NCBI RefSeq assembly: GCF_000012945.1
Contig: NC_007510.1
Span: 310,001-374,000, forward strand
Length of the DNA: 64,000 bases
DNA from: Burkholderia lata
GTDB lineage: Bacteria; Pseudomonadota; Gammaproteobacteria; Burkholderiales; Burkholderiaceae
Direction: 5' to 3'
The notes under the pieces were generated by a model. It searched no databases. It saw only the letters and a program-made list of their open reading frames with translations, and was not told the origin of the DNA. This document shows, piece by piece, positions 51,938-52,651 of the stretch (its first letter is position 1; each line of letters starts with the position of its first letter). The position numbers were made by a program, and so were the translations under genes.

Positions 51938-52651
51938 ATGGCACGGTTAGCACGACTCTACGTTCCCGACCAGCCGCAGCACGTGATACTGCGCGGCCTG
52001 GATCAGCAACCCGCGTTCGTCGACGACCAGGACTACGAACTCTTCATCGATTGCCTGAAGGCCGCCGCACGCGATCATCACCTGTCGGTGCATGCCTACG
52101 TGCTGCTGCCGCGCCAGGTGCAACTGCTCGTGACGCCGAGCGACGAAGCGAGCCTGCCGAAAGCGATGCAGGCGGTCGGTCGCCGCTACGTCGCGCATTT
52201 CAACCGGCGCTATTCGCGGCGCGGCACCCTGTGGGAAGGCCGCTATCGCGCGACCGTGATCGAAGGCGAGCGCTATTTCCTGCTCGCGAGCCGCGTGGTC
52301 GAGATGAGCCCGGTGCGCGCGCAGCTCGTCGCGACGCCCGAGGCCTATCGCTGGTCGAGCTACCGGCACCACGTCGGGCTCACCGTCGACAGCCTGATCA
52401 CCGACCATCCGCTCTACTGGGCGCTCGGCAACACGCCGTTCGACCGCCAGCGCGCGTACAAGGAGCTGTGCGAGCAGCCGCTCGACGAGCGGCAGGCCGA
52501 CCAGCTGCAGCAGGCGACGTTGAAGGGCTGGGTGCTCGGCGGCGAGAATTATCGCGAGTGGGCGGCGCGTACCGCGAACCGGCGCGTATCGCCGCTGCCG
52601 CGCGGACGCCCCAGAAAGGTGCGTGAAAACACGCCGCCGATTCAGCAGTAA
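51938..52651 (+). CDS. RAYT-family transposase homologue lacking catalytic residues
   Basis: The 237-residue protein has the Y1/HUH transposase fold of REP-associated tyrosine transposases, with the family pattern HVILRG at the start, VHAYVLLP (residues 51-58), LWEGRYRATVI and PVRAQLVATPEAYRWSSYRHH. The catalytic HUH pair is replaced by Gln60-Val-Gln62, and the position of the catalytic Tyr (Y115 in E. coli YafM) is Val120 in RVVEMSP, where active members have a Tyr. It is complete, in frame, and has the local codon use, so it looks domesticated rather than decaying. No REP repeats were found at either side. It lies 289 bases before gltB. Confidence 0.85.
   Translation: MARLARLYVPDQPQHVILRGLDQQPAFVDDQDYELFIDCLKAAARDHHLSVHAYVLLPRQVQLLVTPSDEASLPKAMQAVGRRYVAHFNRRYSRRGTLWEGRYRATVIEGERYFLLASRVVEMSPVRAQLVATPEAYRWSSYRHHVGLTVDSLITDHPLYWALGNTPFDRQRAYKELCEQPLDERQADQLQQATLKGWVLGGENYREWAARTANRRVSPLPRGRPRKVRENTPPIQQ

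What the first reader, a model, noticed from the sequence alone, without database searches (positions are those of the whole stretch)
51938..52651. Catalytically dead RAYT transposase homologue preserved upstream of gltBD
The protein keeps the full REP-associated tyrosine transposase fold, but the HUH histidines are both glutamine (Gln60, Gln62) and the catalytic tyrosine position (Y115 of E. coli YafM by my alignment) is valine (Val120); the following Asn of the NP motif is Ser. All three catalytic residues are lost while the reading frame, length and codon use remain intact. That combination suggests selection for nucleic-acid binding without cleavage, i.e. a domesticated transposase. Its place just before the gltBD promoter raises the possibility of a regulator of glutamate synthase or a structural DNA-binding protein.
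Basis: partly seen in the sequence, partly recalled or inferred. Interest (0 to 1): 0.75.

Follow-up and report, generated by a model that had tools for sequence, protein, structure and literature searches.

The report
Dead transposase turned gltB promoter regulator
A gene descended from a DNA-cutting transposase has lost its cutting residues several times over yet is kept almost unchanged, together with its own recognition sequence at the switch of a central nitrogen gene, so it probably now works as a gene regulator.

Summary
Window 51938-52651 encodes a 237-aa RAYT-type protein whose catalytic His, His and Tyr are Gln60, Gln62 and Val120. It is intact in 65 of 65 congeneric genomes and evolves at median dN/dS 0.043, as constrained as gltB. 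Intact forms survive at the same locus in other genera; the tree needs nine changes, at least six forced by well-supported branches.

New: the gltB promoter carries a spaced pair of GACCCCAATTAA-type sites, matching the published terminal-repeat signature of such transposases, in fixed register to the -35 box. The pair is in 59 of 62 RAYT-linked named-genome loci and 0 of 27 gltB promoters without an adjacent RAYT. In 300 genomes its 10 occurrences all lay upstream of gltB, control 0. In 7 of 7 genomes whose RAYT is no longer beside gltB, sites remain at gltB and none (up to 1 mismatch) flank the RAYT.

Best explanation: a catalytically dead RAYT acting in trans as a regulator of gltBD. Binding, direction and signal are not shown.

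The parts
51938..52651 (+). Catalytically dead RAYT/TIRYT-type protein, 237 aa (Q60, Q62, V120, S124); C-terminal part contains LPRGRPRK
52673..52700 (+). Intrinsic-terminator-like GC hairpin plus T run just after the RAYT stop, so RAYT and gltB are probably separate transcripts (inferred)
   Evidence: sequence and alignment of 52 Burkholderia loci; coordinates
52716..52727 (+). Site A (GGCCCCAATAAA), first half of the proposed operator
52718..52761 (.). Inverted repeat CCCCAATAAAACGG-16 nt-CCGTTTAATTGGGG; single copy in the genome
52752..52763 (-). Site B(-) (TTAATTGGGGTT), second half of the proposed operator; starts 36 nt after site A and 29 nt before the -35 box
52781..52786 (+). Proposed gltB -35 box TTGCTA
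52792..52821 (+). Near-invariant promoter block; holds the proposed -10 box TATATT (52805-52810)
   Evidence: 29 of 30 columns identical in 52 distinct Burkholderia intergenic sequences; coordinates
52941..57644 (+). gltB, glutamate synthase large subunit (proposed target)
57730..59196 (+). gltD, glutamate synthase small subunit

Best explanation
A TIRYT-type tyrosine transposase settled upstream of gltB in an ancestor of several Burkholderiales families and was kept as a DNA-binding regulator. Its own flanking-repeat sequence (TCTG[A/T]CCC plus an AT part) became a two-site operator in fixed register with the gltB -35 box: site A near -101 and site B near -65 to -41, if the -35 box is taken to begin at -35. 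The protein acts in trans on these sites and controls glutamate synthase transcription. Cutting is not needed, so the HUH histidines and the tyrosine were lost repeatedly while fold, length and site spacing were kept. Shown by sequence: residue loss, purifying selection, site pair, spacing, co-occurrence, persistence of sites at gltB when the RAYT is elsewhere. Inferred: that the RAYT binds the sites, that binding regulates gltB, and that the C-terminal extension (with a GRP motif resembling an AT-hook, a label I recall) helps bind double-stranded DNA. Whether it activates or represses is open; the position just upstream of -35 leans slightly towards activation.
For: Purifying selection: median dN/dS 0.043, 1321 pairs from 52 sequences, against 0.062 for gltB. 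Repeated loss: 9 changes on an 88-row tree, at least 6 forced. Spaced pair in 48 of 52, 45 of 87, 10 of 13 and 59 of 62 linked loci, 0 of 27 gltB promoters without an adjacent RAYT; Markov control 6 of 1070. Scan of 300 genomes: 10 pair hits, one per genome, reversed control 0, all 10 directly upstream of gltB. Register: B(+) starts 17 nt before -35 in 63 of 99 scored loci and 18 nt in 13; B(-) starts 29 nt before it in 36 Burkholderia and 5 other loci, the only value scored that way. Trans test: 7 of 7 genomes with a displaced, dead RAYT keep sites at gltB and 0 of 7 have them beside the RAYT; G065, with gltB and no RAYT, has none. Source of the site: 11 of 16 non-adjacent relatives carry CTGWCCC in a 150-nt flank (8 upstream, 9 downstream, 6 both) against a background of 0.111 per 150 nt; the half-site is multicopy in four genomes, most in G408 (28) and G469 (44), control 0; published TIR consensus GGGGWSAS.
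Against: No binding or expression data. The motif was first drawn by eye from linked loci; the sets came later. By the strict rule the spaced pair is missed in 42 of 87 loci of other genera of the family. In one search, 23 of 99 scored loci put the -35 box at another distance. G671 has the pair at gltB with no RAYT alongside, though it has one elsewhere. G456 has a RAYT 3.8 kb upstream of gltB but no site within 420 nt, and G469 has six RAYT matches and 44 half-sites but none at gltB. One displaced RAYT (L053) has a near-site with two mismatches upstream. 4er8, the closest solved structure, is bound to a REP hairpin, so binding to a duplex promoter is an assumption. The loss count rests partly on long branches.
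Confidence: 0.7

Rival explanations
1. The A/B sites are an operator for some other nitrogen regulator, or an UP element for RNA polymerase, and the RAYT is kept for an unrelated reason.
For: The AATTAA part lies where an UP element would sit (register; the inference is mine), and G671 has the pair without a neighbouring RAYT.
Against: Sites are absent from 27 of 27 gltB promoters without an adjacent RAYT and from G065, which has no RAYT. The site core equals the repeats beside non-adjacent RAYT relatives (11 of 16) and the published TIR consensus. G671 has a RAYT elsewhere.
Confidence: 0.15
2. The protein acts only on single-stranded nucleic acid: the A/B(-) inverted repeat extrudes a hairpin, or a read-through RNA forms one, and the dead RAYT binds that as its relatives bind REP hairpins.
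For: Inverted-repeat arms with 36-nt register, arms slightly more alike within a locus than across genera (5.07 against 4.08 of 12 flanking positions), and a fold matching hairpin-bound 4er8.
Against: Most loci of other families have direct sites 47-51 nt apart rather than the inverted pair (59 against 7 of 62 named-genome loci); the sites lie upstream of the proposed -10, outside the gltB mRNA; a terminator-like hairpin lies between the RAYT stop and site A in Burkholderia.
Confidence: 0.1
3. Passive hitch-hiking: a dead transposase beside an important gene that has not yet decayed.
For: Mobile-element remnants often sit beside core genes (general knowledge, no call).
Against: 65 of 65 congeneric genomes intact, dN/dS 0.043, a match in 381 of 398 family genomes, retention even when away from gltB.
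Confidence: 0.03

Closest known systems
TIRYT / RAYT subclass 2.1 (TIR-associated tyrosine transposases; PMC3733652 passages, PMC6006769 section 20 and passages)
   Same: RAYT-like protein with a C-terminal extension, and flanking repeats with GGGGWSAS, the reverse complement of the CTGWCCCC core of the sites here.
   Different: The TIRYTs listed there conserve HUH and Tyr; here all three are lost and the repeat pair is a single-copy element at the gltB promoter. 'Burkholderia' and 'Ralstonia' have 0 occurrences in the main texts of PMC6006769, PMC2817692 and PMC3733652; 'glutamate synthase' 0 in the first and 'gltB' 0 in the second.
E. coli TnpA-REP / YafM (PDB 4er8)
   Different: Keeps HMH and Tyr; chain of 165 aa without this extension.
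TldR, RNA-guided transcription factors (PMC13418256, start of abstract in the listing; that they are nuclease-dead TnpB relatives is recalled)
   Same: A transposon-derived enzyme without catalysis that regulates transcription.
   Different: TldR is RNA-guided; this protein comes from the Y1 transposase line and would read DNA sites directly.

Membership tests
RAYT / Y1 tyrosine transposase family | Y1/RAYT fold | tested here: met
RAYT / Y1 tyrosine transposase family | HUH motif and catalytic tyrosine (Y---NP) | tested here: not met
   Q60, Q62, V120, S124: a homologue, not a working member
NCBIfam REP_Tyr_transpos (NF047646) | score above the curated cut-off of 80 bits | tested here: not met
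   54.2 bits
TIRYT | inverted flanking repeats with GGGGWSAS on both sides of the gene | tested here: not met
   Motif within 420 nt upstream in 1 of 27 family loci, not in the window's; the downstream pair is kept. Among 16 non-adjacent relatives 11 have the core in a flank, 6 on both sides
TIRYT | C-terminal extension with HTH-like similarity | tested here: inconclusive
   Extension present and partly helical in the model; no HTH family among Pfam matches of the 10 proteins scanned
Transcription regulator of gltBD | conserved operator in fixed register to the promoter | tested here: met
Transcription regulator of gltBD | protein binds the operator and changes expression | not testable with these tools
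   needs bench work

The most novel reading that the evidence does not exclude
A Y1 (HUH) transposase lineage was repeatedly stripped of catalysis and turned into a dedicated transcription factor whose operator is its own former terminal repeat, controlling glutamate synthase in many Burkholderiales. It would be a concrete natural case of the promoter (REPIN) and transcription factor (RAYT) idea that has only been speculated about (PMC8049555, passage).
Probability: 0.6. Interest if true: 0.92.

Novelty: new variant of a known kind. Interest (0 to 1): 0.85.

Why it matters
What RAYT transposases do for their hosts is an open question (PMC8049555, passages). Here catalysis has been removed by evolution several times while the protein and its recognition sequence stay together at one promoter, which separates binding from cutting and names a target gene. 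That makes the question directly testable with one protein and one promoter. It would also show how a mobile element's ends and enzyme become an operator and its regulator, and add an unrecognised regulator of nitrogen assimilation in a large bacterial group.

Tried and rejected
Recent dead allele: rejected, the state is the same in 52 of 52 loci read of the genus. Repeat population in the window's genome: no exact copy of TCTGACCCYWATTWA in G000, G012 or G083, and one copy of the inverted repeat in G000. The full motif as a universal feature of RAYT relatives: absent from 6 of 6 unlinked named-genome loci; the AT part varies. Strong arm covariation: only weak. HTH domain in the C-terminal part: no Pfam match. 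Literature: no paper held both 'transposase' and 'upstream of gltB'. Searches (30 of 6,698 listed; 6 of 6; 15 of 28; 8 of 8; 8 of 74; 2 of 2) showed no report of a gltB-linked RAYT in titles or abstract starts; the capped lists leave most unseen. The sequence-string search gave unrelated papers in the 15 of 205 listed. Bertels 2017 is not held.

Rows dropped or chosen: 4 of 151 family loci under 190 aa left out of the residue table; 13 of the genus's 65 loci were not fetched; 40 outgroup gltB upstream regions were chosen from the 111 genomes with a match; motif derivation used 27 chosen family loci and 13 outgroup loci; the tree used 88 chosen rows. Of 80 named-genome loci, 2 are cut by contig ends and 10 linked by tblastn only are not in the 62; of those 10, 7 have the motif downstream. 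A first orientation error was mended. An earlier count in my notes, 12 of 16, was wrong: it is 11 of 16.

Full report
Observation. The reading frame at 51938-52651 is real, 237 aa, uninterrupted. Residues 60, 62, 120 and 124 are Gln, Gln, Val and Ser. A profile of ten relatives aligns the corresponding columns with HMH, Y115 and N119 of E. coli TnpA-REP, 4er8, and the predicted structure (mean pLDDT 77.1) matches 4er8 best. PMC6006769 (passages; section 31) gives the histidines and N119 as metal ligands and the tyrosine as nucleophile, so cleavage by the known chemistry should be impossible.

Conservation. 65 of 65 genomes of the genus hold the protein at 94-100% identity without stops; two also hold a second, broken relative. 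381 of 398 genomes of the family hold a match at E up to 1e-5, which need not always be the orthologue. Genus names are mostly inferred: only g20 = Paraburkholderia has support in calls (the 3,175,376-base contig of L038, equals the longest contig of a Paraburkholderia bonniea protein). Burkholderia (g1), Caballeronia (g10), Pandoraea (g11), Cupriavidus (g3), Ralstonia (g24) and Polynucleobacter (g12) are recalled labels. Pairwise dN/dS (NG86) has a median of 0.043 in g1 (52 sequences, 1321 pairs) against 0.062 for up to 300 codons of gltB from its N-terminal motif on; RAYT values elsewhere are g20+g10 0.105, g11 0.047, g3 0.160, g24 0.063, there each higher than gltB (0.056, 0.028, 0.084, 0.025).

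Catalytic residues across the family. Of 147 full-length loci read, 49 keep His, His and Tyr (g3 20, g24 8, g11 13, g12 7, g5 1) and 98 lost at least one; 52 of 52 in g1 are QVQ/V/S. g3 and g24 keep H, H, Y and N but changed the following Pro, so their activity is unsure. Replacements differ by genus: AVQ/V in 11 of 13 of g20, AVH/V in 6 of 6 of g10, AVQ/L in 4 of 4 of g8, IVH or GVH with L in 3 of 3 of g15. On a tree of 88 rows built without those four columns the label needs 9 changes, at least 6 forced by starred branches; shuffles average 29.6. Several long branches make the exact count uncertain.

Linkage. 139 of 147 family loci have the gltB start downstream in the same orientation within the fetched stretch; the 8 without are one g7, four g21, two g22 and one contig end. 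Outside the family, 13 of 40 chosen gltB upstream regions carry a RAYT homologue within 2.6 kb (f3 3/3, f4 3/3, f8 1/2, f10 2/3, f18 2/2, f49 2/2), some intact, some dead. In a scan of named genomes (the best 80 loci of a capped list; its patterns favour intact forms), 72 are gltB-linked (62 by motif, 10 by tblastn), 2 are cut by contig ends and 6 are not linked within 0.9-3.5 kb.

The site pair. Between RAYT and gltB a motif GWCCCYWATTWA (up to 1 mismatch) recurs. In the derivation set it is in 33 of 40 linked loci (21 of 27 and 12 of 13), in 0 of 27 gltB upstream regions without an adjacent RAYT, in 1.9% of 800 Markov sequences, and upstream of the RAYT in 1 of 27. In the later named-genome set it is in 60 of 62 linked loci, in 7 of the 10 linked by tblastn, and in 0 of the 6 unlinked. 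Spacing is tight: A to B(-) is 36 nt in 48 pairs of 52 g1 loci; A to B(+) is mostly 49-50 nt in other genera of the family and 48-49 nt in other families. A spaced pair is in 48 of 52, 45 of 87, 10 of 13 and 59 of 62 linked loci and 0 of 27 without an adjacent RAYT; Markov control 6 of 1070. Of 99 loci with B(+) and a scored promoter, B(+) starts 17 nt before the -35 box in 63 and 18 nt in 13; B(-) starts 29 nt before it in all 41 scored that way, 36 of them g1, which is the same register.

Unbiased scan. The exact pair pattern over 300 genomes of the order gave 10 hits, one per genome, control 0. It is strict, so most linked genomes do not match, the window's included. All 10 lie directly upstream of gltB and 9 have the RAYT alongside. 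The tenth, G671, has another gene there but holds a RAYT elsewhere.

Trans test. Seven family genomes have a dead RAYT that is not beside gltB: G070 about 13 kb away on the same contig, G117 over 1 Mb away, five on other contigs. Sites are present at the gltB promoter in 7 of 7 and absent, at up to 1 mismatch, from the fetched RAYT flanks in 7 of 7; L053 has a near-site with two mismatches upstream of the RAYT. Of 17 family genomes without a RAYT match I searched 16 for gltB: 15 lack it too, and the one with gltB, G065, has no sites. Most of these are small genomes, so the co-loss is weak evidence. Against the rule: G456 has a RAYT 3.8 kb upstream of gltB and no site at gltB, and G469 has six RAYT matches, 44 half-sites and none at gltB. 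So the operator was adopted in some lineages only.

Origin of the site. Among 16 RAYT relatives not adjacent to gltB, 11 carry CTGWCCC within 150 nt (8 upstream, inverted; 9 downstream, direct; 6 both), with an AT part that differs between loci; background 0.111 per 150 nt. The half-site TCTGACCCYWATTWA matches in 8 of 35 genomes and is multicopy in four: G469 44, G408 28 (20 of them in ten inverted pairs 36-49 bp apart), G631 7, G602 3; reversed control 0 in all 35. The TIR consensus of TIRYTs is GGGGWSAS (PMC3733652, passages; PMC6006769, section 20), the reverse complement of this core. The operator is therefore very probably a former transposase-end sequence.

Mechanism. In the window: site A 52716-52727, B(-) 52752-52763, -35 at 52781, -10 at 52805, gltB at 52941; the inverted repeat is unique in the genome. 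A terminator-like hairpin at 52673-52700 separates the RAYT transcript. I infer that the protein binds A and B and sets gltB transcription. All 52 g1 proteins contain LPRGRPRK in the C-terminal part, and 155 of 160 proteins checked contain a GRP core there; this resembles an AT-hook (recalled) and could read the AATT part; not tested. The sign of regulation and the signal are unknown.

Known and new. RAYTs as vertically kept, domesticated genes are published, as is the speculation of a promoter and transcription factor system (PMC8049555, passages). PMC6006769 kept only proteins with HuH and Y for its tree (passage), so dead forms were left out there. I found no report of the gltB link, the operator or the repeated catalytic loss in the searches named in Tried and rejected, some of whose lists were capped; Bertels 2017 could not be read.

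Noticed in passing
52792-52821: 29 of 30 columns of the gltB promoter block are identical in 52 distinct Burkholderia sequences, more than -35/-10 boxes alone would seem to need.
   Followed up: partly
G408, G469, G631, G602: Multicopy TIR-like half-sites: 28, 44, 7 and 3 copies; in G408, whose gltB-linked RAYT keeps H, H and Y, 20 of 28 form inverted pairs 36-49 bp apart.
   Followed up: partly
L121, L123, L130 (g20) and L039, L062-L064 (g8): Dead RAYTs with about 85-110 extra C-terminal residues (321-347 aa in all), function unknown.
   Followed up: no
loci L195-L274, upstream of the RAYT: 23 of 62 gltB-linked loci also carry the site, mostly inverted, within 400 nt upstream of the RAYT gene, which could mean autoregulation.
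   Followed up: no
G000:C1:545604-545729: A short Y1_Tnp fragment with a stop, the only other Y1_Tnp match found in the window's genome.
   Followed up: no
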